This document shows, one piece after another, positions 2,476 to 45,552 of a stretch of 64,000 nt of DNA (position 1 is its first letter; every line of letters starts with the position of its first letter). The stretch is from Thermococcus sp. 2319x1. GTDB taxonomy: Archaea > Methanobacteriota_B > Thermococci > Thermococcales > Thermococcaceae. The notes beneath the pieces were generated by a model that saw only the letters and a program-made list of their open reading frames with translations, was not told where the DNA came from and made no database searches. The stretch spans positions 56,321 through 120,320 of the forward strand of contig NZ_CP012200.1 of the NCBI RefSeq assembly GCF_001484685.1, in the 5' to 3' direction. Both the position numbers and the translations under genes were made by a program.

Positions 2476-2643
2476 CACTCTCACCATCGTTAATATGATC
2501 TTGACCTAAAACGAAGGTTTCGAGTGTTCCAAAGCTCTTTTTAATTATGGGGGAGATGAAATCGACGGGATAACCAATCATGAAAAAAGTTCGCAAAATC
2601 ACTTTAAATCTCTTTTTCCCCTAAAAAAGTTAATAACAAAGAC

Positions 2644-3408
2644 TCAAGGAACCGGATAGCCAAGTCCTTTGAGGATCATTCTGAGGGCTAAAAATGCCAT
2701 CACAACAGCAAAAGCTTTTGTTAGATTGCTTGCCTTGGTTCTTTTCGCTATCTTTGCTCCTAACTGAGCCCCAACTATCAATCCCGGCACAAGTAGTATT
2801 AGCCACTCAACCTCAACGTTCCCGAGCATATAGTGTTTAAAAGCCCCACTTGTGGCGGTAAATACTATGGCAAAGCTTGAAGTTGCCACGGCATAGTGTA
2901 TCGGCAGTCCCATGTAAGTTAGGAACGGAACGTTTATCGCTCCTCCCCCTATTCCAAGTAGCCCGCTTGCTATTCCTGCTATGAATCCTCCAATAGGCAC
3001 TATTTTATAATCCAGCTTTATCTGGCTCAAATCTACTTCATGTGGCTCTTTGCTCTTTTTGCGGTAAAGCCTTATTGCCACAAGGAATAGGACCACACCA
3101 AAAATGACCTTTAACTGGCTTGCGCTTATATAACTCGTCATCCATGCCCCTATGTATGCCCCTATCACTGCAGTGCTTGCCAAAAGGAGACCTGCTTTGT
3201 AGTGTATTCTTCTCTGTCTGTGGTAGGCTATGGCAGAGCTTAGGGAAGTGAAAACAACGGCAGCACTTGAGGTTCCAACTGCGTGATGGATTTCCACTCC
3301 TAAGAGGTTTAGAGTTGGTACGATCAAAAACCCTCCCCCTAAGCCGAAGAGAGCTGCCAATATGCCTATGAAAACTCCAACACCAAAATATCCAACATAT
3401 TTAAGCAA
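2644..3408 (-). CDS. TSUP family (TauE/SafE, DUF81) membrane transporter
   Basis: 254 residues with a TTG start at 3408 placed exactly behind a perfect GGAGGTGAT. Extending to 3435 would leave that site inside the gene. The protein is almost entirely membrane helices with an internal repeat: FGLGGGFLIVPTLNLLGVEIHHAVGTSSAAVV in the first half matches GIGGGAINVPFLTYMGLPIHYAVATSSFAIV in the second (quoted only as the paired GLGGG/GIGGG and AVGTSS/AVATSS motifs). This is the signature of TauE/SafE-type exporters of sulfonates, sulfite or related organic anions. The substrate cannot be told. It lies directly downstream of the M42 peptidase gene on the same strand, 13 bases away, so cotranscription is likely. 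Confidence 0.85.
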   Translation of the reverse strand: MLKYVGYFGVGVFIGILAALFGLGGGFLIVPTLNLLGVEIHHAVGTSSAAVVFTSLSSAIAYHRQRRIHYKAGLLLASTAVIGAYIGAWMTSYISASQLKVIFGVVLFLVAIRLYRKKSKEPHEVDLSQIKLDYKIVPIGGFIAGIASGLLGIGGGAINVPFLTYMGLPIHYAVATSSFAIVFTATSGAFKHYMLGNVEVEWLILLVPGLIVGAQLGAKIAKRTKASNLTKAFAVVMAFLALRMILKGLGYPVP

Positions 3409-3421
3409 AGAATCACCTCCG

Positions 3422-4420
3422 TTATTCGAGTTCAAACACGAGGGCTTCTATTAGCTTTATCAGGGCTTTGAGATCATCTAAGTGGAGCGTTTCTGTTTCG
3501 CTGTGGAGGTATTTTATGGGGACGCTTAAAGCTAAAGTCTGGCTTTTGGCTTCAAAAACCGATGCGTCAGTTCCTCCCCCGGTAACTCCGATCTGTATTG
3601 GAATGTTGTTCTTTTTTGCTATTTCAAGGGCTTTCCTTGACAGAGATGGGGTGTATATTGCAGAATTATCCACGGCCCTTATTACAGCACCTTTTCCAAG
3701 TTTCACGTCCCCTGTAAGGAAGGAGCAGCATGCAAACGAATCCACCGCTACAGCATACTTTGGAGAATAGCTGCTCGCCAGAAACTTGGCTCCCTTGAGC
3801 CCTATCTCTTCTTGAACCGTAAAGGCAAAGATGTATTTTCCGTCCAGATCATGGTCAACAAGGTCTTTTATGGCTTCAACCAGAGCAACAACACCAAACC
3901 TGTCGTCTAAGGAGCGTGTAGCTATGTATTTGTTGTTTAAGATGCTGAAGTGCTTTTTAAATACTGCAAAGTCCAAAACCTTTACTCCCATTTCTTCGGC
4001 TTCTTCCTTTGATTCCGCTCCAATGTCTATTTCGAGGCTGTGCCAAGGAATGGTGTCGAACTTCCTTTCAAGGTTGAGGTGTACTGGTGTTACACCTATA
4101 ACCCCGTCCAGCTCCCCCTTCTCGGTTATTACCGTTACATGCCTTCCCAGAAGAAGCCTATCATCTATTCCTCCAATTTTTCTGAACTTTAGCTTTCCAT
4201 CATTGGTTATTCCTGTTATCAGGAGTCCAATTTCGTCCATGTGTGCCATGAAAATGGCCTTTTCTTCCCCTTCTCCAAGCTCTACAATAAGGTTTCCAAT
4301 TGTATCAACCTTGTAGTCAGCGTAATCCTTTATCCATTCGATAACCTTCTCCCTTATCCTGCCCTCATATCCCGAAATGCCGGGAAGTTGAGTTATCTCT
4401 TTAAGCTCTTCCACAATCAT
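3422..4420 (-). CDS. M42 family aminopeptidase (TET/deblocking aminopeptidase type)
   Basis: 332 residues, start at ATG 4420 behind GGTGAAGG. The predicted dinuclear metal site is complete: H60 in AHMDEIG, D172 in SLDD, E204-E205 in VQEEIGLKG (catalytic base and ligand), D227 in AVDSF and H306 in YLHSETE. This is the M42 pattern of large dodecameric TET aminopeptidases, which trim peptides released by the proteasome or taken up during peptide fermentation. Insertion GGIDDRLLLGRHV matches the PDZ-like dimerisation region. Cytoplasmic; no signal peptide. Heads a likely operon with the TSUP transporter. Substrate preference among Thermococcales TET paralogues cannot be assigned from sequence alone. 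Confidence 0.88.
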   Translation of the reverse strand: MIVEELKEITQLPGISGYEGRIREKVIEWIKDYADYKVDTIGNLIVELGEGEEKAIFMAHMDEIGLLITGITNDGKLKFRKIGGIDDRLLLGRHVTVITEKGELDGVIGVTPVHLNLERKFDTIPWHSLEIDIGAESKEEAEEMGVKVLDFAVFKKHFSILNNKYIATRSLDDRFGVVALVEAIKDLVDHDLDGKYIFAFTVQEEIGLKGAKFLASSYSPKYAVAVDSFACCSFLTGDVKLGKGAVIRAVDNSAIYTPSLSRKALEIAKKNNIPIQIGVTGGGTDASVFEAKSQTLALSVPIKYLHSETETLHLDDLKALIKLIEALVFELE

Positions 4421-4756
4421 TTCCTTCACCGAAAAATAAATGGAGGTAAACTACTTAAAGTTTTTTAATAGCGTTAAGATTTGCGTTTTAATGATTAAAG
4501 AGTCCTGATAATATCTGTGTGTAAAATACAAAAGTACAAAAAATGATTATGGCAGTTTCCGGTACTCATACAAGAGCAGCAACATCCTTTTGTTTAACTG
4601 TGGTTGTTAAATGGAGAATTGGTAAAAAACATAGGCATCTTCTCTTATTTGACCTTCCTTTTTCACAATTCTGTTAATTCCTCGTATTGTCGTTCAGAGT
4701 TAATGTTGAAAATTATTAAAAACAAATATGACAAATCAAATATGGGGGAGTGCATA
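4421..4756. other. AT-rich intergenic region between divergent genes
   Basis: About 335 bases without a convincing gene. It should hold the minus-strand promoter of the M42 gene (TTTAA-rich stretch near 4450-4470) and the plus-strand promoter of the HExxH gene (ATTATTAAAAAC near 4712). A 44-codon frame beginning at ATG 4542 lacks a ribosome site and looks random. Upstream extension of the HExxH gene to TTG 4604 is open but has no ribosome site or signal-like residues. No repeat or RNA gene was seen. Confidence 0.5.
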
Positions 4757-6427
4757 GTGAAGTTGTCTAAGGCGGGATTGATAATGATTATTCTGATTGT
4801 AGTTGGAACATTTCCTGAAGGATACTCACAAACTGAGAATAAAGCTAGTATTATAGTTGAAGTCAACCCAAATCTTGAACTGTTTGCAGTAGTTTACATT
4901 TTAGCCTTTAATGGGAGTGATCCGTTTATAATAGCACCCGAAGATTACATTAACGATGTCTTGACATACTTTGCCCCTTACAAAGAGCATGAGGCGGTCG
5001 AATACATTAGGAAAATTCTTGATAAGTCTTACCCGTATTACCACCGTGATAGTGTGATAATGGATCTAAGCACTAGACTAGTGGCTTTAGATTACCTGCC
5101 AAATGAGACTAATCTCGGCGATTTAAAGCCCCTGGCAGAGTTTGCCAAAGAGAGCAACTTCATGGAGTTTTACAAAGCTCACGAGAAAGAATACGCTGAA
5201 TACACCTCAAGCATAAAGCCTTACTTACTGGGCGTCCCAAAGCTGCACAGGGAATTCTTTGGATATGCTGCTAAAGAATACCGAGTCGAATACTCGTACT
5301 CATTGAGAATACGTGCTCATGCAGAATTCCAAGGAGGGACAGTCTACTGCATAGACTACATCTACCCATCCAAATATGAAGAAGAAAAGATTCAGGACGT
5401 TGTTGCAATATTCCATGAGTTTACACATCCTTTTGTTAATAATTTTCTGGGGAAAACCTACAAGCTTTTCGAGAACAAAAGTTATTACCTGGATGAAATC
5501 AAAAACCAACTACCCATGACTACAATGTATGATTCAGCGCATTTTGGATCATTCATTCAGTATCTTAACGAGGTTTTAACAGAAAGCCTCGCAGAGTACT
5601 TCGCCTTAGAGAGTGGTGTTCCCCAAGAGTCAGTTAAGTATAGAACACTTAAACTCTCCTCTGGGTTGTATCCTCTCGAAGATTTTTTGAAAGAATATAA
5701 GTATTTTGAAAAAATCAGGAAAGATAATGAAACTCTGCTTGATTACGCTCCCACTATGGCCGAACACATGGGGGAGTGGGCAACTCCAGAGAACATCAGT
5801 AGATACTTTAATAAGAGAGCTCCTGTCATGGGACTCCCACTTATAAACAGAGGCACATACCTTGGCAAGATTGTAATTGTTTACGGTACCCAAAACCCCG
5901 ATAAAAGTGGTGTGGAGTACGATAAAAAAACTGCGGAGGAGTTGAGGGAGTTTCTTGAGAACTCATTTATCATAGGCTACAGCAACGCCCCCAAAATAAT
6001 TGTCAAAGAGGATGTTAATTTGACAGATGAAGACCTAAGGGGGAATTTAATTCTTATTGGCGGTCCTGTAGCGAATGAAATTACGAGGAAGCTAAATGAC
6101 CAACTTCCAGTAGCTTTTGTGCATTATGAGGATGGTTGGAGTTTAAAGCGGAATCCGAGTGCTGTTGAGGATTTCGGTGCGTTTCTGCTAACACCTGATA
6201 ACCTCATAGAACTCCCATTGAACAGCACGATTCCCTATGATGAGTCCATGGGTGTGCTGCAGACTATTAGGAATCCCTGGAATGAGAAAAACTACATTAT
6301 GGTGCTTGCTGGTTTAACACGATATGGAACAAAAAATATTTCAAAGAACTTAAACTTTATAGTTAGTTATAAAATCTTTGGAGGAAACTACACAGAATTA
6401 GGATTTTACAAGCAATATAAAGGGTGA
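4757..6427 (+). CDS. Secreted HExxH metalloprotease-like protein with S-layer-like C-terminus (DUF4932-like)
   Basis: I prefer GTG 4757, 6 bases after GGGGGAG; ATG 4742 is the alternative. Signal peptide KLSKAGLIMIILIVVGTF. The middle carries HEFTHPFVNNF (a HExxH zinc site) and, about 60 residues on, TESLAEYFALESG, a plausible third zinc ligand Glu as in gluzincins. The last ~200 residues (VYGTQNPDKSGVEYD, then LILIGGPVANEIT, IRNPWNEKNYIMVLAG) resemble the C-terminal domain of archaeal S-layer proteins. A paralogue with the same order lies at 45849-47621. Predicted to act at the cell surface; substrate unknown. The stop overlaps the start of the next gene (a radical-SAM remnant) by 4 bases, implying translational coupling. 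Confidence 0.7.
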   Translation: MKLSKAGLIMIILIVVGTFPEGYSQTENKASIIVEVNPNLELFAVVYILAFNGSDPFIIAPEDYINDVLTYFAPYKEHEAVEYIRKILDKSYPYYHRDSVIMDLSTRLVALDYLPNETNLGDLKPLAEFAKESNFMEFYKAHEKEYAEYTSSIKPYLLGVPKLHREFFGYAAKEYRVEYSYSLRIRAHAEFQGGTVYCIDYIYPSKYEEEKIQDVVAIFHEFTHPFVNNFLGKTYKLFENKSYYLDEIKNQLPMTTMYDSAHFGSFIQYLNEVLTESLAEYFALESGVPQESVKYRTLKLSSGLYPLEDFLKEYKYFEKIRKDNETLLDYAPTMAEHMGEWATPENISRYFNKRAPVMGLPLINRGTYLGKIVIVYGTQNPDKSGVEYDKKTAEELREFLENSFIIGYSNAPKIIVKEDVNLTDEDLRGNLILIGGPVANEITRKLNDQLPVAFVHYEDGWSLKRNPSAVEDFGAFLLTPDNLIELPLNSTIPYDESMGVLQTIRNPWNEKNYIMVLAGLTRYGTKNISKNLNFIVSYKIFGGNYTELGFYKQYKG

Positions 6428-6786
6428 AAGCCATGCACCTCTCTTATTTTACAAACATCATCCCACTAACCGGAAATGAATATCTCTTGCTGAAGCCTGG
6501 TTCAAAACCCTTGACAGTGGATGGAGAAGTTGTTGAAACGATTAAAACTCCAAGCTGTGCTCCAAAAGAAGTTATAAACGCTCTGATAAAAGAAGGATTT
6601 ATTACAAACTTAAAGCCGGAAGAAGAAGTTGCATTATTTTACAGTTTTTTAGAACAAAACGAATCCCAAATAAAAGGTAAATATAGCATTGCAATAACAT
6701 ACAACTGCAACTATTCTGCGGCTAGTAATGTTACTAATGATCCTACCAGTATCTGCCAATTTTCACTAAACTTTAAAAACCCCTAG
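6424..6786 (+). pseudogene. Truncated radical SAM/SPASM peptide maturase, N-terminal remnant
   Basis: 120 residues from GTG 6424 (or ATG 6433). The opening (HLSYFTNIIPLTGNEYLLL, then a PEVVNALIKEGFI-like helix) and YSIAITYNCNYS match the N-terminal leader of archaeal radical SAM/SPASM proteins, in which this strand runs straight into the CxxxCxxC iron-sulfur motif. Here only the first Cys (CNYS) is left; the next residues are unrelated and a stop follows. The rest of the enzyme is missing, since tbp begins 45 bases later. The GTG overlaps the stop of the HExxH gene, so the two were probably an operon. I infer a deletion of about 1 kb. The short product would have no catalytic site. Confidence 0.65.
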
Positions 6787-6790
6787 GGAA

Positions 6791-6800
6791 TTATTTATAA
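6791..6800 (+). promoter_or_regulatory. TATA box of the TATA-binding-protein gene
   Basis: TTATTTATAA lies 32-41 bases before the TTG start of tbp, the expected distance for an archaeal TATA box with a very short leader. The strong ribosome site GGAGGTG at 6820-6826 sits between it and the start. Confidence 0.6.
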
Positions 6801-6831
6801 AGGGTTTTTAAACCCAGTGGAGGTGTAGGCC

Positions 6832-7398
6832 TTGGTTGATATGAGCAATGTTGAACTTAGGATAGAAAACATAGTAGCCTCTGTGGATCTTTTTGCTTCT
6901 CTTGATCTTGAAAAAGTGATAGAAATCTGCCCGCACTCAAAGTATAACCCGGAGGAGTTCCCAGGGATAATATGTCGCCTCGATGAGCCAAAAGTTGCCC
7001 TTCTTGTGTTTAGCTCCGGTAAGCTTGTGGTAACTGGGGCAAAGAGTGTTGAAGACATTCAGGCAGCGGTTTCAAAGCTTGTTGAAATGCTCTCGAGAAT
7101 CGGGACCAAGTTCACCAGAGCGCCGGAGATAGATATCCAAAATATGGTGTTTAGTGGAGATCTTAAGATGGAGTTTAATCTCGATGCCGTCGCTCTTGTG
7201 TTGCCGAATTGCGAGTATGAACCTGAGCAGTTCCCCGGTGTTATCTATCGTGTTAAAGACCCTAAGGCGGTTATACTTCTCTTCAGCTCTGGGAAAATCG
7301 TGTGCAGTGGGGCAAAGAGTGAACACGATGCCTGGGAAGCCGTTAAAAAGCTCCTCCATGAGCTTGAAAAATACGGCCTCATTGAAGAGGAGGCTTAA
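6832..7398 (+). CDS. tbp: TATA-box-binding protein
   Basis: 188 residues. General transcription factor that binds the promoter TATA box and recruits TFB and RNA polymerase. Two direct repeats of ~90 residues form the saddle: first [40 protein letters not shown]; second [40 protein letters not shown] (motifs given in pieces of the well-known family pattern FPG..R, FSSGK and GAKS). A short acidic tail (EEEA) follows. TTG 6832 is chosen because GGAGGTG ends 5 bases before it and the resulting VDMSNVEL start matches Pyrococcus TBP; ATG 6841 is the fallback. The HDAC-like gene follows on the same strand. Confidence 0.95.
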
Positions 7399-7426: not shown

Positions 7427-8431
7427 ATGGAGATTCTCTATTCCGAGGTCTTTAAAGAGCACAAACCTCTAAGATATCACCCTGAAAATCCGGAAAGGCT
7501 TGAACTTGCTATAGAAGGGCTTAGGAACTCTGGTTTGTGGATGAACATAAGGGAGCCTCCAGAGGCGAAAGTAGAGAAGCTTTTAAGGGTTCACTCTGAG
7601 AAATACGTTGAAATGATAAGGGAGCTCTCAAAAACGGGCTTCTCTTTTGTTGACCCCGACACCTATGTATCTCAAGCCACTTGGAAAGCTGCCCTTAAGG
7701 CCTTTGGAGCAGCTGTTGAGGCGGCAAGGCTTGCACTTAAAAAGAAAGACATTTATCTGGCTTTGGTTCGACCACCGGGTCATCATGCCGGTAAAAATGG
7801 AAGGGCATTTAAAGCTCCCACACTCGGCTTCTGCATCTTTAACAACTCCGCTGGAGCTGCTCTTGAGATTAAAGATGCTCTCGGGGATGCAGTGGTGATA
7901 GATTTTGACGTTCATCATGGCAACGGTACGCAAGAGATATTCTGGGATGATAATGAGGTTGTGCATATAGACATCCACGAGAAGGCCATCTATCCGGGAA
8001 GCGGAGAGATTTACGATGTCGGGGGAAAAGGGGCAGAGGGGAGCAAAGTAAACATCCCAATGCCTCATTATTCAAAGGATGACGACTACATCTTAGCATG
8101 GAGAGAAATAGTTCTTCCAATTCTGGAAGAGATAGCGCCAAGGGTTATCGTGGTCTCAGCAGGCTTTGATGCTTTTAAAGACGATGGCCTCGCTACAGTG
8201 GAGTTAACTGAGAAGTTTTATCAATTTGCCGGAGCTTCCCTTTCAAAGTTTAGCTTGGCCGTTGTTTTAGAAGGGGGCTATAGTGTGGGACTAAAGAGAG
8301 GGTTACCTGCATTTATTCGGGGATACATTTCGGGAAAAGCACACAGAGAAGGGATTTACCCGAGTTATGAAGCGGTAAAAGTTGTTGAAGCTGCTAAAGA
8401 AATATATGGGAAATGGTGGGAAATTGGATAA
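7427..8431 (+). CDS. Histone-deacetylase-family amidohydrolase
   Basis: 334 residues, ATG start behind GGGGGAG. Contains the class I/II deacetylase core: RPPGHHAG with tandem His at 119-120, DFDVHHGNGTQEIFW with predicted zinc ligands D161 and H163, SAGFDAF with ligand D248, and LEGGYS near the end. These enzymes remove acyl groups from lysine or acetylpolyamines. In Thermococcales the physiological substrate (Alba, histones, polyamines or a biosynthetic intermediate) is unsettled. Full length, cytoplasmic. It sits 28 bases after tbp, so it may share its transcript. Confidence 0.9.
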   Translation: MEILYSEVFKEHKPLRYHPENPERLELAIEGLRNSGLWMNIREPPEAKVEKLLRVHSEKYVEMIRELSKTGFSFVDPDTYVSQATWKAALKAFGAAVEAARLALKKKDIYLALVRPPGHHAGKNGRAFKAPTLGFCIFNNSAGAALEIKDALGDAVVIDFDVHHGNGTQEIFWDDNEVVHIDIHEKAIYPGSGEIYDVGGKGAEGSKVNIPMPHYSKDDDYILAWREIVLPILEEIAPRVIVVSAGFDAFKDDGLATVELTEKFYQFAGASLSKFSLAVVLEGGYSVGLKRGLPAFIRGYISGKAHREGIYPSYEAVKVVEAAKEIYGKWWEIG

Positions 8432-8439
8432 AAGAGGTC

Positions 8440-9048
8440 TTAGAGCCCCAAAATTTCTTTTGCAGCCTTTATTCCAAGGTCAAAGGCTTTCATGTTCATT
8501 TCCACGGCTTTTGGAGGGACGCTTAGCTTTATGACTTCTCTGACGTGCTCGGCATCGAGCGGGAACTCCGGAATCTGTGTTAAAGCTCCAATTAGAACTG
8601 TGTTTGTTGTGACAACGTGACCTGCTTGTTCGGCAAGCTCTTCAGCATTAAAGCCAATCCATTTCGCCTTGAAGTCCTCTTCGAAGACTTTTCTTATCTC
8701 TTCCAAGCTTGGATACTTTGCCATTCCCATTGAAACCTGCACTGGAACTATTGGCTTTGTGTTAACAACTACCACTCCACCCTCCTTGAGGTAGTTGATG
8801 TATCTTAAGGCCTCTACGGGCTCGAAGGAAAGCATAACATCCGCTTTTCCCTCTGGCACCATTGAGCCGTAAACGTCCTCTCCAAAGCGTACGTAACTTA
8901 TGACGGAACCAAAGCGCTGGCTCATTCCGTGGACTTCTCCTATCCTCACCTTGTATCCCGCTCTCAAGGCAGCCCAGCCAAGAACGTTTGCGGCCGTTAA
9001 AACTCCCTGACCGCCTACCCCGGTGATGACTATGTTATACTCCCTCAT
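8440..9048 (-). CDS. iorB: Indolepyruvate ferredoxin oxidoreductase, beta subunit
   Basis: 202 residues, ATG behind GGAGGGATC. Corresponds to the gamma-type domain of 2-oxoacid:ferredoxin oxidoreductases: [22 protein letters not shown] near the start (seen as GVGGQG), then [19 protein letters not shown]. With IorA it oxidatively decarboxylates aryl pyruvates made from Trp, Phe and Tyr to aryl-acetyl-CoA and reduced ferredoxin. Its start overlaps the iorA stop by 4 bases, so the two are coupled. Last gene of the acd-iorA-iorB operon. Confidence 0.93.
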
Positions 9049-10985
9049 TGTGATCCCTCCTTTACGGGTTCAAAGGCCCCAAATGGACACACCTGGGCAC
9101 AACCTCCGCATCCCCAGCACATTGTTGGCTCAACTCTTGCCTGCCTCTTCTCCTCGTCCCAGTAAATCGCTGGACAGCCATAGGCGTTTATACATACCCT
9201 ACATCCTGTGCACTTCTCCTCATTGACTTGGTAGATTGGCCATTTCATTCCCCTTCTTCTCATTTGTCCCACTTTGTAGAGGGCACACACTTGTCTCGAT
9301 ACCACAACGCTAACTCCTTCAACCTCTAAGGCCTTCTTTATGGTCTCATAGGTTGTCTTTATGTCATATGGGTCAACTACTGCCACAAAATCAGCTCCCA
9401 TGGCTTTTGCAACGTCCTCTATGGGTATTCTCTTGCCCATACCATGCGGGGTCTGTCCGGTGCTTGGATTTGGCTGATCGCCGGTCATTGCAGTGACGAG
9501 GTTATCCAAAACCACTATGAGAACGTTTGAGCGGTTGTAGATTGCGTTTGCCAAAGCTGGCAAACCAGTGTGGTAGAATGTTGAGTCACCAATTGTGGCA
9601 ACTATCACTTGCTTCTCGGGGTTTCTCTGTTCTTCACTTAGACTTCCGTTCTGGGCTATGCTCAACCCATGGGCAATTCCGATTGAAGCTCCCATAGCCA
9701 CGGTTGTATCAACGGTTTGAAGCGGCGGAAGCAATCCAAGGGTGTAGCAGCCTATGTCACTTGGATAGATCGCCCTTGCCCTTGTGGCCTTCTTTATGGC
9801 GTAGAAGCTGTTTCTGTGTGGACACGCTGGACACAGTGAAGGAGGTCTTGGGGGTAAGAGGGGCTTAACCTTTTCGTACTTTGCGTCAAGCTCTTCAAAG
9901 TTTATTGGCGTCTCAAGCCCAAGGAACTTTGCTATGGCAGTTACAGCCCTCCTTGTCGTCATCTCGTAAACTCTGGGCACGAGGTCTTTTCCATGAATTG
10001 GGATTGTGAAGCCTCTGTCATAGGCCCACGTTTTTACCTGCTCCTCAACCACCGGCTCAAGCTCCTCAACGATGAGAACCATCTCAAGTCCCTGGAAGAA
10101 CTTCTCTAACAATCCATAGGGAACTGGGAACGGTGTTCCAAGCTTGAGGATCTTCACATCGTCAACGCCAAGCCAGGCGAGAGCTTCTTTAACATAGGCG
10201 TAGCTTAAGCCAGGAGCGATTATACCAACCTTGGCGTTCTCGTCGCCTTCTATCCAGTTGAATGGACAGTTGTTGAGTTCCTCTCTTATTTTTTCAATTT
10301 TCTCAAGGATTACCGGGTGGAACTTTCTTGCGTTAGCTGGGACATCGACAAACCTGTTTGGGTCTTTTTTAAACTTGCCAAACTTTCTCTTTCCCTGCTT
10401 TATCTCCTCTGGCAGTTCCCCTAATACTACATCCCCTCTTGCGTGTGAAGTCCTCGTCGTTGTCCTTAAAATCACAAAGTGCTTAAACTTCTCGCTGAGC
10501 TCGAAAGCGTATTTTGTCATTTCCTTTGCCTCTTGGGGATCGCTCGGCTCGAGAACCGGAACGTTTGCAAACTTTGCGTAAATCCTTGTGTCTTGCTCAT
10601 TCTGTGAAGACCACATGCTTGGGTCGTCTGCCACCATTATGACGAATCCACCCTCAACACCCATTCCAACTGCACTCAGGAAGGTATCGGCAGCAACGTT
10701 TAAACCAACGTGCTTCATTGCCGTCATTGCCCTGAGGCCACTCCAAGCTGCGGCTAAAGCGGTCTCAAAGGCAACTTTTTCGTTTGTGGAGTACTCCATG
10801 TAGACTCCAGCTTTTTTGCTTACAACGGCCATTGTATCGGTGAGCTCCGAGCTTGGAGTTCCAGGATAAGCGGCATAAACCGCTATGTTTGCCTCAAGTG
10901 CTCCTCTGGCTATTGCTTGATTCCCTAAAAGCAAAACCCTTTCCCCGGGTTTGTCCCATAAAACAATATCGCTAACTTTAGCCAT
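9045..10985 (-). CDS. iorA: Indolepyruvate ferredoxin oxidoreductase, alpha subunit
   Basis: 646 residues from ATG 10985, which has GAGGTGGT upstream and gives [15 protein letters not shown], the usual Pyrococcus start; frames open further upstream to 11042 inside the previous gene. N-terminal pyrimidine-binding domain ([25 protein letters not shown]), a central region, a TPP-binding domain with [32 protein letters not shown] and then two C-terminal [4Fe-4S] ferredoxin motifs, [14 protein letters not shown] and [16 protein letters not shown]. Together with IorB it makes aryl-acetyl-CoA in amino-acid fermentation, passing electrons to ferredoxin. Cytoplasmic, oxygen sensitive. Confidence 0.95.
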
Positions 10986-10995
10986 CCACACCACC

Positions 10996-12363
10996 TCATT
11001 CTTTAACAACACCCTTTGACTTGGCGAACTCAGCCAGAGCATAAGCGGCTACCCCAACGTCTTCGGGCCTTTCATAAGTTGGAATGCCTTCTCTTTCAAG
11101 AAGTTCCTTGGCTTTCTCGCTAACGTGTCCGGCCATGAACAATGCCAAAACCGGTTTTCCATTATTGACTTCCTTAACGGCTTTTATGACCCCTTCCGCG
11201 TGCTCCGTCGGAGTCATCCCCGCAAAAGTTGGCACAACACAAATAGCGATGAGCATATCAACGTTTTCATCCTCTAAGAGGAGCTTTGCTGTCTTGTAGT
11301 ACTCCTCCCCCCTTGCTGAGGCTATCATATCAACTGGGTTCTTAACTGCCGCCATTGGAGGCAAGAATGATCGGAGCTTTTGCATTGTTTCCTCTTCCAA
11401 GTTGGCTAACTTTAGTCCCCTCTTGTCTATCTCGTCTGCCGTTAAAACCCCGGGACCACCTGCGTTGGTCATTATTGCGACTCTCTTTCCTTTTGGCAGT
11501 GGTTGGGTAAAAGCCCTTGCCATACTCAACATTTCATCTATGGTGTTTGCAACTAAAATTCCGCTTTGCTTGAATGCGGCTTCATAAATGGCGTAACTTC
11601 CGGCCAAAGAACCCGTATGGGATGAAGCAGCCCTTGCGCCGCTTTCGCTCTTTCCGGCTTTTAAGGCTATTATTGGCTTCTTCTTGCTGACTCTTTTCGC
11701 AACTTCCATGAATCTCCTTCCGTCTTTTATACCCTCTATATAAAGGGCGATGGCTTTGCTGTTTTCATCCTCGGCCAAATACTCCATAAGGTCTGCAAAG
11801 TCCACGTCACTCATATTTCCGACGCTTATGAACTTAGAAAATCCAATGTCCTCTTTGATAGTCTTGTAAACTATTCCAGCTCCTAAGGCTCCGCTTTGGG
11901 ATACGAAGGCAACACTGCCTTTCTTGGCGTTCATTATAAACGTTGCATTGAGATTGCTGTGGGTGTCCATTACTCCTACACAGTTAGGCCCTATAATCCT
12001 CATTCCATATTTATGGGCTATTTCAACGAGTTCTCTCTCTTCTTTCTTTCCCTCTTCACCCATTTCGCCGAATCCCGCTGTTATTATTATGACACCTTTC
12101 ACGCCTTTTTCTCCGCAATCGATGAGTGATTGTTTGACGAATCCTTTGGGTACAACTATGACAGCTAGGTCAACCTCGTCTGGAATATCCTTGACGTTCT
12201 TGTATGCTTTAATCCCTTGAACGACTTCGTCTTTTACATTTACTGGATACACCTTTCCTTTGTACTCTTTTAGGTTCTTGAAGACCTCATAACCGAGTTT
12301 CAGAGGATCATTGGATGCCCCCAGCACCGCAACGCTCCTTGGGGTGAAGAAATAATCGAGCAT
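10996..12363 (-). CDS. acdA: ADP-forming acyl-CoA synthetase alpha subunit (ACD II-like)
   Basis: 455 residues from ATG 12363, with GGTGATT 7 bases upstream (GTG 12375 is possible). CoA-binding Rossmann domain at the N-terminus (PRSVAVLGASNDP), GPNCVGVMD, succinyl-CoA ligase-like region with the active-site loop and GSLAGSYAIYEAAF (HTG in SSHTGSLAG), and MTNAGGPGVLTADE. ADP-forming synthetases turn acyl-CoA plus ADP and phosphate into acid plus ATP. The gene directly precedes iorAB, as in Pyrococcus, where this isoform accepts aryl-acetyl-CoA. So the operon couples aromatic amino-acid oxidation to ATP formation. The beta subunit is not in this window. Confidence 0.9.
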   Translation of the reverse strand: MLDYFFTPRSVAVLGASNDPLKLGYEVFKNLKEYKGKVYPVNVKDEVVQGIKAYKNVKDIPDEVDLAVIVVPKGFVKQSLIDCGEKGVKGVIIITAGFGEMGEEGKKEERELVEIAHKYGMRIIGPNCVGVMDTHSNLNATFIMNAKKGSVAFVSQSGALGAGIVYKTIKEDIGFSKFISVGNMSDVDFADLMEYLAEDENSKAIALYIEGIKDGRRFMEVAKRVSKKKPIIALKAGKSESGARAASSHTGSLAGSYAIYEAAFKQSGILVANTIDEMLSMARAFTQPLPKGKRVAIMTNAGGPGVLTADEIDKRGLKLANLEEETMQKLRSFLPPMAAVKNPVDMIASARGEEYYKTAKLLLEDENVDMLIAICVVPTFAGMTPTEHAEGVIKAVKEVNNGKPVLALFMAGHVSEKAKELLEREGIPTYERPEDVGVAAYALAEFAKSKGVVKE

Positions 12364-40736: not shown

Positions 40737-40917
40737 GCAATACCACCTGAAATACATTATGCAATACGAAGTATATAAAATTTGCGTTTATCTCGTGAGA
40801 GCCTCGCCCTTTTAGAGGGATGACTTAGGGGGTCGTAAACCTTTCTCTTTAACCACTGTTGAACGGGGGTGAAAACCCTTAAATATCATTTCGATGAAGA
40901 TTTTAATGGTGTCACCT

Positions 40918-42237
40918 ATGGATGTTGTTGAGCTTCTTTCCGAACTGGTGAGATTTGACACAACAAACGACCCGGCAAAAGGCGTAAAACCCTCAAAGGA
41001 GTGCCCGGGGTTTATAGTGGATACACTGTCTTCCTGGGGCATCGAAGCTGAGCTGGTAGAAAAAGATGGCTATTATGCAGTTTATGGTGAAATCGGCAAA
41101 GGGAAGCCAAAGCTCCTCTTTATGGCGCATTTTGATGTAGTCCCAGTGAACAGAGAAGAGTGGGAGACTGAACCGTTTGAGCTTACCATTAAAGGTAGCA
41201 GAGCATACGGAAGGGGAAGTGCCGATGACAAGGGAAACGTAGCTTCAGTGATGTTAGCGTTGAAAGAGCTCTCAAAAATGGAGCTTGAGGGGAAGATTCT
41301 GTTCGCATTTACCGGCGATGAAGAAATCGGTGGAAAAATGGCAATGCACATTGCTGAAAAGCTGAAGGGCGAAAATAACCTTCCTGAATACATGATCAAC
41401 GCAGATGGCATTGGCATGAAACCCATAATACGCAGGAGAAAGGGGTTTGGAGTTACCATAGCCGTTCCTTCTGAAAGAATCAAGCTCAGAGGAGTCCTAA
41501 AAGAAAGGAAGTTTAAGGTGAGCACCCCTATTCTCGAAACAAGGCATGCGGCATATTTCCTTCCCGGAGTTGATACCCATCCGATGATAGCACTCTCGCA
41601 CTTTTTGAGGAATTCAAACGCTTTGGCGGTCTCCCTTGAAGGAAAGTTCCTCAAGGGAAACGTCGTGCCGAGTGAGGTAACGCTCAGGTATCTTGAGCCG
41701 GGAGAGGGAGAGGAAGTTGAAGCAGATATGTGCTTGACAAAACTTTTAAAGGCGATAGTGCCTCTGGTGAGAGCTCCAATAAAGCCTGAAAAGTACAGCG
41801 ATTATGGAGTATCGATAACTCCCAACATCTATTCCTTTAAGGATGGCAAGCATGTTCTGAGGCTAGACATAAGGGCGATGAGCCATTCCCATAAAGACAT
41901 CGAGAGCACCATAAAAGAGGTTGTTGCCTTTAACGTCCCGGAGGCAGAGGTTATCGTAAGCAGCAACGAAAAAGCCGGTTACCTCTTTACCCATCCGGAG
42001 GAAAAGATAGTCAAAACAACTTTAAAAGTCCTTGAAGAACTCGGCGAGAAGGTGGAGCCCGTTGAAGGACCCGGAGCTTCTGACTCAAGGTTCTTCACGC
42101 CTTATGGGGTTAAGGCAATAGACTTTGGACCGAAAGGAGGGAACATTCACGGCCCGAACGAGTATGTTGAGATAGACTCGCTCCGCAAGATGCCAGTGAT
42201 TTATGCTGAGGTTGCGAGGAGGCTGGTAAGGGAGTAG
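40918..42237 (+). CDS. M20-family metallopeptidase (ArgE/DapE/carboxypeptidase type)
   Basis: 439 residues, ATG 40918. Dizinc site: AHFDVVPV (H, D), GRGSADDKGN (D bridging), GDEEIGG (catalytic Glu pair), NADGIG (Asp) and the C-terminal GGNIHGPNEYV His. A dimerisation domain lies between. Members deacylate N-acyl amino acids or trim peptides; the substrate here is not assignable. TATA-like CTTAAATATC near 40879 precedes the start with a short leader. Confidence 0.87.
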   Translation: MDVVELLSELVRFDTTNDPAKGVKPSKECPGFIVDTLSSWGIEAELVEKDGYYAVYGEIGKGKPKLLFMAHFDVVPVNREEWETEPFELTIKGSRAYGRGSADDKGNVASVMLALKELSKMELEGKILFAFTGDEEIGGKMAMHIAEKLKGENNLPEYMINADGIGMKPIIRRRKGFGVTIAVPSERIKLRGVLKERKFKVSTPILETRHAAYFLPGVDTHPMIALSHFLRNSNALAVSLEGKFLKGNVVPSEVTLRYLEPGEGEEVEADMCLTKLLKAIVPLVRAPIKPEKYSDYGVSITPNIYSFKDGKHVLRLDIRAMSHSHKDIESTIKEVVAFNVPEAEVIVSSNEKAGYLFTHPEEKIVKTTLKVLEELGEKVEPVEGPGASDSRFFTPYGVKAIDFGPKGGNIHGPNEYVEIDSLRKMPVIYAEVARRLVRE

Positions 42238-42490
42238 TTAGCTCCCTTCCTCTCTAACTTCGTCGAAATCCTGAAGGTCGAAGACGAGGTAGCCCCCCTC
42301 CTTCGGGTTTCCCTTTTATCCTATTCCCCATCAATCCGAAGTGGTTTCCCTTATCCCAGTGAGCTCCGCTTTCTTTTGAGGTCTTTGGGGCTCTCCACGC
42401 TTCCATTTTGTTCAAGTTTGGGTAGTGGTCGAAGCCGCTCTCTTTTATCCTATGGATTATTTTTCCAGAGAAGTTGAAATTGCAAGAGTA
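42238..42490 (-). pseudogene. C-terminal gene remnant with a frameshift
   Basis: On the minus strand a frame (about 42306-42490) encodes SGKIIHRIKESGFDHYPNL, then KMEAWRAPKTSKESG, AHWDKGNHFGLMGNRIKG; at a six-C run (42292-42297) the sense moves to another frame that ends GGYLVFDLQDFDEVREEGS and a stop at 42238. The two parts read as one protein end, broken by a slip in the G/C run. An in-frame stop lies upstream, so only about 80 codons remain. The parent family is not recognised. Confidence 0.5.
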
Positions 42491-42521
42491 TTAATAAAAT
42501 TATCAGTTGGGGGAATAAATA

Positions 42522-42707
42522 ATGAGAATTCCCTGCTATCCGGTTTTTTGGTATAACCTCCTCAAAGGAATAACCGTTGGAAACTTTCTTATTGTACTTT
42601 TTGGAACCGTTAATCCTCGGTTCGGATTCAGGTTTGCCCTTTTATACTGGCTCGTTATGAGTCCTACCTCATATATCTCCACGGGAAGGAAAAAGATGTT
42701 CTCATAA
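42522..42707 (+). CDS. Small hydrophobic protein, unknown
   Basis: 61 residues, ATG after GGGGGAATAAATA. One or two membrane segments (GNFLIVLFGTV, FALLYWLVM). Not recognised. It lies in a field of broken genes, and with the next small membrane protein may be the remains of one longer gene; the spacing and charge pattern also allow two real small proteins. Confidence 0.35.
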   Translation: MRIPCYPVFWYNLLKGITVGNFLIVLFGTVNPRFGFRFALLYWLVMSPTSYISTGRKKMFS

Positions 42708-42742
42708 GGACACATGGGCTAATGAGGGGGAAGGAAATAGCG

Positions 42743-42928
42743 ATGAGGCTGCTCTTCGTTAGGTACTTTATTGCCTTCCTCGCCCTGCTTGGGGCTCTAA
42801 TTGAGACTTATTTCGGGGAGAACATTTTACTCTTCATAATGGCCGGCATCTTGTGGTCAGTAGTGTATTCCATAGTCATGACCGACGTAGAGTGCCTAAA
42901 GAAACCCGACATAATGGAAGAAAAATAA
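42743..42928 (+). CDS. Small two-helix membrane protein, unknown
   Basis: 61 residues from ATG 42743 (ATG 42722 upstream is possible). GGGGGAAGG lies before the chosen start. Two hydrophobic helices (FVRYFIAFLALLGALIE, ILLFIMAGILWSVVYSIV) and a short charged tail. Not recognised. The stop lies 7 bases before a 16-bp direct repeat that also occurs at 44525. Confidence 0.45.
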   Translation: MRLLFVRYFIAFLALLGALIETYFGENILLFIMAGILWSVVYSIVMTDVECLKKPDIMEEK

Positions 42929-43138
42929 AAACGGCTCACTCCACATAAACTGTCGCTTTAACGGTTTGCTCCTGTGTAGGTGCTTTATGGGGCTCCGAAG
43001 TGTTCCTCTGTTTTCTCTGGTTATCGTGTCCGTGTCAGTAGTAATTTTCCATAATTGTTTTGAATTTACTTTAAAAAATAAAAGTTTATAAACACGTAAG
43101 CTTGTAATCATTTTTGAAACATTATCGGAGGTTTAGCT

Positions 43139-43943
43139 TTGAAGTGGAAGCCGTTGTTTGCAGTCATCATTGGACTGCTGATGGTCGGAACTACTGCAGG
43201 GAGTGCAAGTGCAATAGAATTCCCTATCAATGACACGAGTCTGTCTTTTGGAATCCTTAGAGGATTTTATGATCCTGATCCTAATATCGTGACCAAAACT
43301 CCGGAGAAGATAACAAAAAACGTGGTAGGAATGTTCAAACTGGATCTTTATACGATGGACATCCCAATATAGACGATTATGGTGACTACAAAGTGGCAAT
43401 CAAAATCGTGGATGAGGGGAAGTACATTAACAGAGGAACTTCCTTTGCACTTGTTAGTATGGGAACTCCGCTCACACTTGGGAACCACAATGACCCGATA
43501 GAAATTGGTATTACTGCACCATGGAATTCTACAGTGCATGACAGGGTGTATCGGATCGCTGGACCGATAGATATACCTTCTCAGCCAAGTTCCCCTAATT
43601 TGCTAAAGTGGGGATTTGACTTATTGGTTGGTACATAGGGGTTCCTAATCCTTTGTCACTAATTATCCCGGATTCTAAGGCACCTCTTCCTTTACAGTTC
43701 CATATATTCCCCGGAGAGGAGTCTAATTCATTCAGATTTATATTTGACAATGTTGAATTGTCGGATACGGGCAATAGGATAAACGTTGAGGGTGTCATAA
43801 TAGAATACCAAGAAGGGGACGACGGCATAGCGCCAGTTTATGCATTTTATAAGGTTCCAGTTTACTGGGAATACATTTATGCCACAAAGGTAAGGACTAT
43901 AAACACTAATATACCAATACCAATATACGTAACACATGGGTGA
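43139..43943 (+). pseudogene. Frameshifted secreted protein gene
   Basis: TTG 43139 behind GGAGGTTTAGC starts a signal peptide (WKPLFAVIIGLLMVGTTAG) and a mature part that runs out of frame near 43370; the continuation is DGHPNIDDYGDYKVAIKIVD in the next frame. A second slip near 43621 moves to the third frame (DLIGWYIGVPNPLSLIIPDS), which runs to the stop at 43941-43943. Joined, the protein would be about 267 residues, beta-rich, with no recognised family. Two independent slips argue for decay or sequence errors. TTTATAAAC near 43083 is a fitting TATA box. The end overlaps the start region of the next gene. Confidence 0.65.
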
Positions 43944-43947
43944 TACT

Positions 43948-44505
43948 ATGAGGCTTGGGATAAGGGATGCATTGTACCTTTTCATTATTTTTCTTTTGAT
44001 TGCCCAGCTTTGGTCGGTCTCACGCGAAAACGAGCGTTTGAGAGAAGAACAGAAGAGTATAAAGGAAACTCTTGTGACTTCTCAGCTTATACATGAAATT
44101 TTCGAGTTAAGGCGTCATGCAAAACTAACGAATGTCCTTATGGACACTCCTCCCGGTACTGAATCCAAACTTGCCTTGCTCATTGAATTGAACAATACAA
44201 AATATTCGCTTTCGAGGCTGGAAAGGGATGTCGATCACTTGGGTGCCTGGTTGGGGTATGAAAATGACAGCCTTTCTCCATCTGGTGGGGGCTGTGTGGA
44301 GCTTCTCGAAGTGGTGTACTACACAGTCCAAAGCGAGAACATGACTCACGAGGACGTTCTTCTTGCCTTTAACGGCCTCGATACAATAATAAACTTCACC
44401 CGTGTGTACCCTCCGACCTATGGGAACATCATCCAAGGATTGAGTGATATGAATAAAGAATGCTGGAGGTTACTTCAGGAGGCAAACAGAACGCAGAAAA
44501 AATAG
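43948..44505 (+). CDS. N-terminally anchored helical protein, unknown
   Basis: 185 residues, ATG 43948 behind GGGTGAT. One N-terminal membrane helix (ALYLFIIFLLIAQLWSV), a charged coiled coil (ENERLREEQKSIKETL), then a helical domain presumably outside the cell, with several N-x-S/T sites. Not recognised. Coupled to the broken secreted-protein gene upstream, so the two were an operon; one intact and one decayed partner. Confidence 0.55.
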   Translation: MRLGIRDALYLFIIFLLIAQLWSVSRENERLREEQKSIKETLVTSQLIHEIFELRRHAKLTNVLMDTPPGTESKLALLIELNNTKYSLSRLERDVDHLGAWLGYENDSLSPSGGGCVELLEVVYYTVQSENMTHEDVLLAFNGLDTIINFTRVYPPTYGNIIQGLSDMNKECWRLLQEANRTQKK

Positions 44506-44525
44506 AGGAGAAAATAACCTCGAAC

Positions 44526-44845
44526 TCACTCCACATAAACCGCCGGCTTCAGCGGCCTCGCCGCCTTCTTCTTTCCTCCTTTGTCCTCCTCTGGATTAAT
44601 GACTATCTCTATGCCGAGCTCCTTCTCGATGAAGTCCTTTGCCTCCCTCAGGGCTTTCTCCTCGTCTATGCGCTTCACCTCGAAGGCCCTCTCCTTGATG
44701 AGTCTCTGTATGAGCCTGCTCACCTCTTTGCCGTGCTTCCTCATCTCTGGATCCTTCATCAGCTCGGCAATAGCTGCCTTAAAGTCCTTCTTCTCGGGGA
44801 CCACTTCGACGACCTTCCACTTCCACTTGGAGATAGTATAGATGT
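44526..44845 (-). pseudogene. leuS: Leucyl-tRNA synthetase C-terminal fragment
   Basis: About 107 codons on the minus strand match the tail of archaeal LeuRS: KTYIYTISKWKWKVVEVV, DFKAAIAELMKDPEMRKHG, RLIQRLIKERAFEVKRID, IEKELGIEIVINPEEDKGG and a PLKPAVYVE end. The frame is open further to 44945 but that part is only the antisense of the phosphoribosyltransferase start. No start codon or promoter suits a 107-residue protein, and the remaining ~850 codons of leuS are absent, so this is a displaced 3' fragment. Related bases recur at 42935. Confidence 0.75.
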
Positions 44846-44904
44846 ATGTCTTCTTCGGGAAAAGCTTAAATATTTCTTGTTTATTAACGTCAGTAAGGGA
44901 AATC

Positions 44905-45552
44905 ATGAAGAAGTTTCCAGCGTACTTGGCTTCTTGGGACGACATAGAGAAGTGGGCTAAAGAAGGAGCAATTAAAGTTCTTGAAGAAGGCTGGAGGCCA
45001 GATGTTGTAGTGGGCCTTGCAAGAGGCGGCTGGGTTGCAGCGAGGCTTTACTGCGACTATTTGGGAGTTAAAGATCTCGTGAGCGTTAAAGTGGAGCATT
45101 GGGGAGTTACGGCAACTCCAGACGGAAAAGCCAGACTTAAGTACGGCACGCAATACAATTTTGAGGGCAAGAAAGTCCTGATAGTTGATGACATAGCGGA
45201 CACTGGAGAAAGCTTAACCTTGGCAAAGAACTACGTCGAAAGCAAAAATCCAGCCGAAATAAAAGTTGCAACTCTTTTGACTATAAAAACCTCAAAGTTT
45301 AGACCAGATTACTTCGGAGAAGAGATCGATTGGGCGTGGATAGTCTTTCCGTGGAACTTTGTTGAGGACATGATAAACCTTGTAAACAACTTGTTTGAGG
45401 AAAAGGAAACCCTTACCTCGGACGAAATAATTGAGCTGTTTAAAGAGCTCCATGGTATGGAGGTTCCGAAGGAGAAGCTTGAGGAGGCCTTAAAATTTGC
45501 CCAGATGAGAAAAATATTTAAATGGGATGGGCAATCTTGGCGCAAAGCTTAA
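44905..45552 (+). CDS. Purine (xanthine/guanine-type) phosphoribosyltransferase
   Basis: 215 residues, ATG 44905; TATA-like CTTAAATATT at 44865. Type I PRTase fold with VVVGLARGGWVAARLYCDYLG and the PRPP loop VLIVDDIADTGESL. The C-terminal third (FPWNFVEDMINLVNNL, DEIIELFKELHG) is a helical extension typical of archaeal XGPRT-like proteins. Salvages a purine base with PRPP; guanine, xanthine or hypoxanthine cannot be separated by sequence. Fits with the nucleoside importer nearby. Confidence 0.82.
   Translation: MKKFPAYLASWDDIEKWAKEGAIKVLEEGWRPDVVVGLARGGWVAARLYCDYLGVKDLVSVKVEHWGVTATPDGKARLKYGTQYNFEGKKVLIVDDIADTGESLTLAKNYVESKNPAEIKVATLLTIKTSKFRPDYFGEEIDWAWIVFPWNFVEDMINLVNNLFEEKETLTSDEIIELFKELHGMEVPKEKLEEALKFAQMRKIFKWDGQSWRKA

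What the first reader, a model, noticed from the sequence alone, without database searches (positions are those of the whole stretch)
42935..44540. 16-bp direct repeat brackets a 1.57-kb cassette at a leuS 3' fragment
CTCACTCCACATAAAC occurs at 42935 and 44525. The right copy is the end of a 107-codon leuS fragment. Target-site duplication at a conserved protein-gene 3' end resembles integration of mobile or exchanged cassettes, which in archaea is best known at tRNA genes.
Basis: partly seen in the sequence, partly recalled or inferred. Interest (0 to 1): 0.7.

Follow-up and report, generated by a model that had tools for sequence, protein, structure and literature searches.

The report
Imported leuS-flank island, not a transposon
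A heat-loving archaeon carries, between two unrelated genes, a block of DNA copied from beside another species' leuS gene; such blocks carry an ever-changing set of secreted-protein genes and appear to be swapped between species by ordinary recombination through shared end sequences such as the tail of leuS.

Summary
The 16-bp repeat is real: exact at 42935 and 44525, with only these two copies in the genome. It does not mark a mobile cassette with a target-site duplication. The foreign block is 42239-44856, inserted between an M20 peptidase gene and a phosphoribosyltransferase gene; a 96-99%-identical pair of genomes shows the site filled (G005) and empty (G002). In many Thermococcus genomes M20 and intact leuS are convergent neighbours flanking a hypervariable stretch, so the block is a copy of a foreign M20-variable-leuS3' segment. 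In G082 the same cassette (97% identical) sits beside intact leuS with no left repeat. The left copy is a ~31-bp leuS 3' remnant that also precedes a leader gene in three other genomes. The switch from G082-like to resident sequence falls inside the leuS fragment (44806-44828), so the fragment acted as a homology arm. The cargo is leader-bearing secreted-protein genes plus membrane partners; 25 of 117 leader hits in the family lie within 6 kb 3' of leuS (0.35 expected). In the window the secreted gene is broken and its 189-aa partner intact. Closest described kind: polymorphic toxin and VARTIG-like islands; not VARTIG itself. Integrase-driven integration is unsupported.

The parts
40894..42237 (+). 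M20-family peptidase gene; resident up to ~42000, 3' end of donor type (left border of the import)
   Evidence: Pfam PF01546; identity to G002 falls from ~95% to ~65% from 42001 on, while the 3' end is closest to G036/G004/G005
42239..42418 (-). 3' remnant of an archaeal ATPase gene (ATPase_2/DUF234), intact in G004 and G005
   Evidence: intact ORF; tblastn match with stops in the remnant; Pfam
42440..42505 (+). remnant of a unit promoter region whose leader gene is gone
   Evidence: matches sequence upstream of leader genes in G005, G013 and G036
42522..42928 (+). membrane-protein partner gene 'X', broken by a frameshift; adjoins leuS or a leuS fragment in G067 and G085
42935..42965 (-). left copy of the repeat: ~31-bp remnant of a leuS 3' end
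   Evidence: same junction in G041, G050, G051
42966..43138 (+). upstream (promoter) region of the leader gene
   Evidence: about 80% identical to G041, G050 and G051
43139..43943 (+). leader-bearing secreted-protein pseudogene (leader MKWKPLFAVIIGLLMVGTTAGSASA); 437 bp deleted relative to G082
43936..44505 (+). intact 189-aa gene with one N-terminal hydrophobic segment, proposed antidote/partner
   Evidence: (dN/dS 0.09-0.50, mostly 0.1-0.27)
44526..44856 (-). leuS 3' fragment (~110 codons) of Thermococcus type; right-hand homology arm, crossover at 44806-44828
44905..45552 (+). resident phosphoribosyltransferase gene bordering the insertion
   Evidence: Pfam PF00156; empty site in G002

Best explanation
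The block 42239-44856 is an imported copy of the variable stretch that lies between convergent M20 and leuS genes in Thermococcus-type donors. Step 1: an ancestor acquired the donor segment [M20 3' end - ATPase - methyltransferase - secreted-protein units - leuS 3' end]; the left border lies within the resident M20 gene (homology), the right border is a short illegitimate join of the leuS fragment to the phosphoribosyltransferase promoter. The filled and empty sites and the shared right join of G000, G004 and G005 are shown; the order of events is inferred. Step 2: the stranded leuS 3' fragment on the right and conserved unit sequence (leader, or the leuS'-promoter segment) on the left then served as homology arms through which later donors replaced the contents. 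The last replacement in this genome came from a G082-like donor and ended inside the leuS fragment (the switch is shown; homologous recombination as the cause is inferred, and natural transformation as the route is inferred). Step 3: the left 16-bp copy is a leuS 3' remnant at a unit boundary, left when one unit was joined to the leuS end behind another (junction shown in four genomes; origin inferred). The cargo is a family of secreted proteins with a constant leader and variable bodies, followed by membrane proteins; they most likely act in conflict between strains, as effector and immunity protein, and here only the 189-aa immunity-like gene survives intact (inferred).
For: Empty site M20-27 bp-phosphoribosyltransferase in G002, which is 96-99% identical to insert-bearing G005 over the flanks. 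Convergent M20 and leuS 0.9-5 kb apart in G013, G016, G036, G039, G040, G042, G081 and G082. Window cassette plus leuS fragment 97% identical to G082 beside intact leuS. Sharp switch from G082-like to G005-like sites at 44806-44828 inside the leuS fragment (Fisher P about 5e-26). leuS'-promoter-leader junction shared by window, G041, G050 and G051 with two different left neighbours. 25 of 117 leader hits lie within 6 kb 3' of leuS, all convergent, 0.35 expected. leuS pieces of other lengths at other places in G020, G024 and G085. 189-aa gene intact without an intact secreted partner in G000, G004, G040, G041 and G051, under purifying selection. Pyrococcus furiosus COM1 takes up genomic DNA and recombines with homology as short as 40 bp (PMC5099854).
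Against: The step-1 donor and the exact right-hand join are not pinned down. The leuS'-leader junction seems to be one ancestral event, so its ~31-33-bp length cannot show whether it arose site-specifically. No effector domain was detected in any cargo protein tested, so the conflict role rests on gene layout, leader sharing and orphan-partner retention.
Confidence: 0.8

Rival explanations
1. Site-specific integration: small circular cassettes integrate at a ~31-bp site in the leuS 3' end, restoring leuS and leaving the displaced end as the left repeat; a recombinase acts from elsewhere.
For: In G041, G050 and G051 the order partner gene - 33-bp leuS end - unit - intact leuS is what 3'-end integration would leave. 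Integration into protein-gene 3' ends is known in archaea (PMC6563490).
Against: No recombinase in the block; the two tyrosine-recombinase hits of the genome lie 0.3-0.7 Mb away. Most leuS-adjacent units have no leuS remnant. leuS pieces of other lengths and positions exist. The four junctions look like one event. In the window leuS is not restored.
Confidence: 0.1
2. The repeat is a transposon target-site duplication around a 1.57-kb element, as first proposed.
For: Exact 16-bp direct repeat 1590 bp apart.
Against: The same cassette occurs in G082 and G004 without the left repeat; sequence beyond both copies is also foreign; the empty-site comparison puts the insertion borders at 42239 and 44856; the match extends to ~31 bp of leuS. 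No transposase-like ORF was noted in the block.
Confidence: 0.02
3. The left 16-bp copy is a coincidence and only the right leuS fragment matters.
For: About half a chance 16-bp pair is expected per 64 kb; the left copy is diverged beyond 16 bp.
Against: Homology to G041, G050 and G051 starts at the first base of the repeat, and there the remnant matches the window's leuS end at 85-94% over 32-33 bp.
Confidence: 0.06

Closest known systems
VARTIG modules of Thermococcales (Makarova et al. 2021, PMC8416519)
   Same: Thermococcales-limited, hypervariable islands; secreted protein first, membrane proteins after; contents exchanged between species rather than within a genome
   Different: VARTIG centres on large Ig-domain proteins (arCOG07710, mostly >500 aa) and exchange was noted beside an RNase III homolog; here the proteins are 240-450 aa, share a leader, have no Ig/CARDB match in Pfam, and the site is the leuS 3' flank
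Polymorphic toxin systems
   Same: constant N-terminal part with variable bodies, neighbouring candidate immunity genes, orphan immunity genes
   Different: the constant part is little more than a signal peptide; no known toxin or processing domain was found
Archaeal mobile elements integrated in protein-gene 3' ends (for example thaumarchaeal elements and casposons at ef-2, PMC6563490)
   Same: short repeat of a conserved gene's 3' end beside foreign DNA
   Different: no recombinase, repeat not required, borders elsewhere, target gene not restored in the window
Exchange of flanked gene blocks by homologous recombination (as in bacterial hotspots with conserved flanks; own knowledge)
   Same: variable content between conserved flanks; crossover seen inside a flank
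   Different: the right flank here is itself a displaced foreign gene fragment far from the resident leuS

Membership tests
Integrase-borne element at a gene 3' end | recombinase gene in the element | tested here: not met
   no such ORF seen in 42239-44856; genome hits to PF00589 only at 437 kb and 809 kb
Integrase-borne element at a gene 3' end | repeat brackets the element in carriers | tested here: not met
   G082 and G004 carry the cassette without the left copy
Integrase-borne element at a gene 3' end | target gene restored | tested here: not met
   only ~110 leuS codons at this site; intact leuS at 182 kb
Transposon with target-site duplication | duplication lies exactly at the insertion borders | tested here: not met
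   empty-site borders are 42239 and 44856
VARTIG | large secreted protein with Ig domains | tested here: not met
   240-450 aa, no Pfam Ig/CARDB match
VARTIG | hypervariable island with a secreted protein followed by membrane proteins | tested here: met
   absence outside the family was not tested
Polymorphic toxin system | shared N-terminal part with variable bodies | tested here: met
   shared leader and upstream DNA with different bodies
Polymorphic toxin system | toxin domain | tested here: not met
   no match in Pfam or NCBIfam above cut-off for the proteins tested; one also searched against PDB sequences
Polymorphic toxin system | immunity gene | tested here: inconclusive
   189-aa gene kept intact where the secreted partner is lost or broken; no functional test
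Integron cassette array | IntI integrase and attC sites | tested here: inconclusive
   no integrase nearby; attC folding not examined

The most novel reading that the evidence does not exclude
Thermococcaceae carry an undescribed polymorphic secreted-protein/membrane-partner system whose constant promoter-leader segment on one side and the 3' end of a housekeeping gene (leuS) on the other serve as exchange arms, letting naturally competent cells swap weapon and immunity genes across species, even at ectopic sites once a leuS fragment has been stranded there.
Probability: 0.35. Interest if true: 0.65.

Novelty: new variant of a known kind. Interest (0 to 1): 0.42.

Why it matters
The VARTIG authors wrote that the mechanism of shuffling in such Thermococcales islands is unclear (PMC8416519). 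Here a crossover is mapped to about 20 bp inside a flanking housekeeping-gene fragment, and a constant leader and leuS end recur at exchange borders. That gives a testable route (uptake of DNA plus short flanking homology) for spread of variable secreted proteins between hyperthermophile species. It also warns that a short repeat at a gene's 3' end need not mean an integrase.

Tried and rejected
tRNA attachment site: no tRNA in the window. Plasmid origin: no match in the plasmid collection. Defence-family match of the 189-aa gene: none. Close relatives of the 189-aa protein in genome contigs: none confirmed. Domain searches of cargo proteins: nothing above cut-off. Literature on leuS-linked integration or hypervariability in Thermococcales: none held.

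Full report
WHAT IS THERE. The exact repeat CTCACTCCACATAAAC lies at 42935 and 44525 and nowhere else exactly in the genome. The right copy ends a leuS fragment on the minus strand, about 110 codons (44526-44856). The intact leuS of the same genome lies at about 182.3 kb and is only 73% identical to the fragment, so the fragment is foreign. An exact 16-bp pair alone would be weak evidence in 64 kb, but the match extends imperfectly over ~31 bp.

BORDERS. Comparison with 12 other species of the genus shows that the M20 peptidase and the phosphoribosyltransferase are neighbours, 27 bp apart by alignment in G002 and similarly close in G001, G006, G009 and G012. The foreign block is 42239-44856. 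G005, 96-99% identical to G002 over the flanks, has the block; G002 does not. G000, G004 and G005 share the same right-hand join, a leuS piece running into TTCGGGAAAAGC before the phosphoribosyltransferase. The 3' end of M20, from about 42000, is also of donor type. At the same site G008 has a different 4-kb insert coding for a type IIG restriction enzyme.

SOURCE. In at least eight other genomes of the family M20 and leuS converge 0.9-5 kb apart. The stretch between them is variable: an ATPase (ATPase_2/DUF234), a methyltransferase, and one or more units made of a secreted-protein gene with the leader [V/M]KWKPLFAVLLGLLMVGVTAGSASA followed by a membrane-protein gene. The ATPase part of G004 and G005 is 91% identical to G036, G081 and G013. 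The window keeps only the ATPase's tail, a unit promoter remnant, a frameshifted membrane-protein gene (X), a leader gene with a 437-bp deletion, and the intact 189-aa gene. The cassette and leuS fragment are 97% identical to G082, where leuS is intact and no left repeat exists.

THE CROSSOVER. Along the window identity to G082 is 98-100% in most 50-bp steps from 43201 to about 44800 and then drops, while identity to G005 rises to 94-98%. Counting informative sites, the switch falls between 44806 and 44828, within the stretch TCGACGACCTTCCACTTCCA inside the leuS fragment (54 against 4 sites on the left, 2 against 58 on the right; P about 5e-26). This is the footprint of recombination inside the stranded leuS fragment. 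The left edge lies in or near the leader: 88% identity at 43151-43200, 100% just after.

THE LEFT REPEAT. From its first base the left copy and the next 260 bp align with G050 (79%), where the remnant is clearly the leuS 3' end, and the same junction occurs in G041 and G051. To its left stands the 189-aa gene in those three genomes, but gene X in the window; X adjoins leuS or a leuS fragment in G067 and G085. So the left copy is a leuS-end remnant at a unit boundary. All four junctions look like one ancestral join, so its length is not evidence for a fixed attachment site. Other leuS pieces differ: a 67-bp internal piece in G024, a composite 150-codon ORF in G085, and a long fragment in G020.

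HOTSPOT. The promoter-leader DNA has 117 hits in 50 of 94 genomes; 25 hits in 22 genomes lie within 6 kb on the 3' side of leuS, all convergent with it, against 0.35 expected. The count of genomes is a lower bound set by the E-value cut. The own genome has two further leader genes, at 1021 kb and 1795 kb, each followed by membrane-protein-like genes.

FUNCTION. None of the tested cargo proteins has a recognised domain above cut-off. The 189-aa gene is intact in nine genomes with dN/dS of 0.09-0.50, mostly 0.1-0.27; in five of these (G000, G004, G040, G041, G051) its secreted partner is broken or absent. Retention of the partner without the secreted protein is what an immunity gene would show; this is inference. 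Most membrane partners of other units have two or three hydrophobic segments; X has one by the same crude scan.

MECHANISM. The best-supported reading is one-sided or two-sided homologous recombination of donor DNA through shared flanks, followed by decay. Natural competence and recombination with 40-bp homology are reported for Pyrococcus furiosus COM1 (PMC5099854). No recombinase is near. Site-specific integration remains possible for the ancestral leuS'-leader join but is not needed.

KNOWN OR NEW. The nearest described thing is VARTIG (PMC8416519), which shares hypervariability, secretion, membrane partners and between-species exchange, but is defined by large Ig-domain proteins not found here. 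I found no held paper describing leuS-flank islands in Thermococcales. I therefore call it a new variant of a known kind (polymorphic secreted-protein islands). The specific claim about a duplication-flanked cassette is not upheld.

Noticed in passing
L049 (G008), raw coordinates 7454-11302, minus strand: A different 4-kb insert, a type IIG restriction-modification enzyme gene, sits at the same M20-phosphoribosyltransferase site in G008; part of the insert is 71% identical to DNA in the leuS locus of G036 (L061).
   Followed up: partly
L074 (G054) 2624-7153: A 1510-aa STAND/NACHT-TPR protein gene lies next to leuS in G054, so the leuS 3' flank also hosts defence-like cargo.
   Followed up: partly
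L103 6381-7100 and L104 6625-7530: Two more leader-bearing secreted-protein genes in the window's own genome (1021 kb and 1795 kb), each followed by or near small membrane-protein genes, not near leuS.
   Followed up: partly
L036 (G004): The intact leuS of G004 is 86% identical to the Thermococcus-type fragment, unlike the other genus members (71-76%), suggesting that its leuS 3' part was itself replaced.
   Followed up: no
L033 6995-8551 (G001): A 518-aa protein gene of unknown family lies between the 189-aa gene homologue and leuS and overlaps the leuS end.
   Followed up: partly
L072 (G020) 7842-9898: A long, interrupted foreign leuS copy with a methyltransferase remnant lies near a purC-like gene, another displaced leuS-flank block.
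   Followed up: partly
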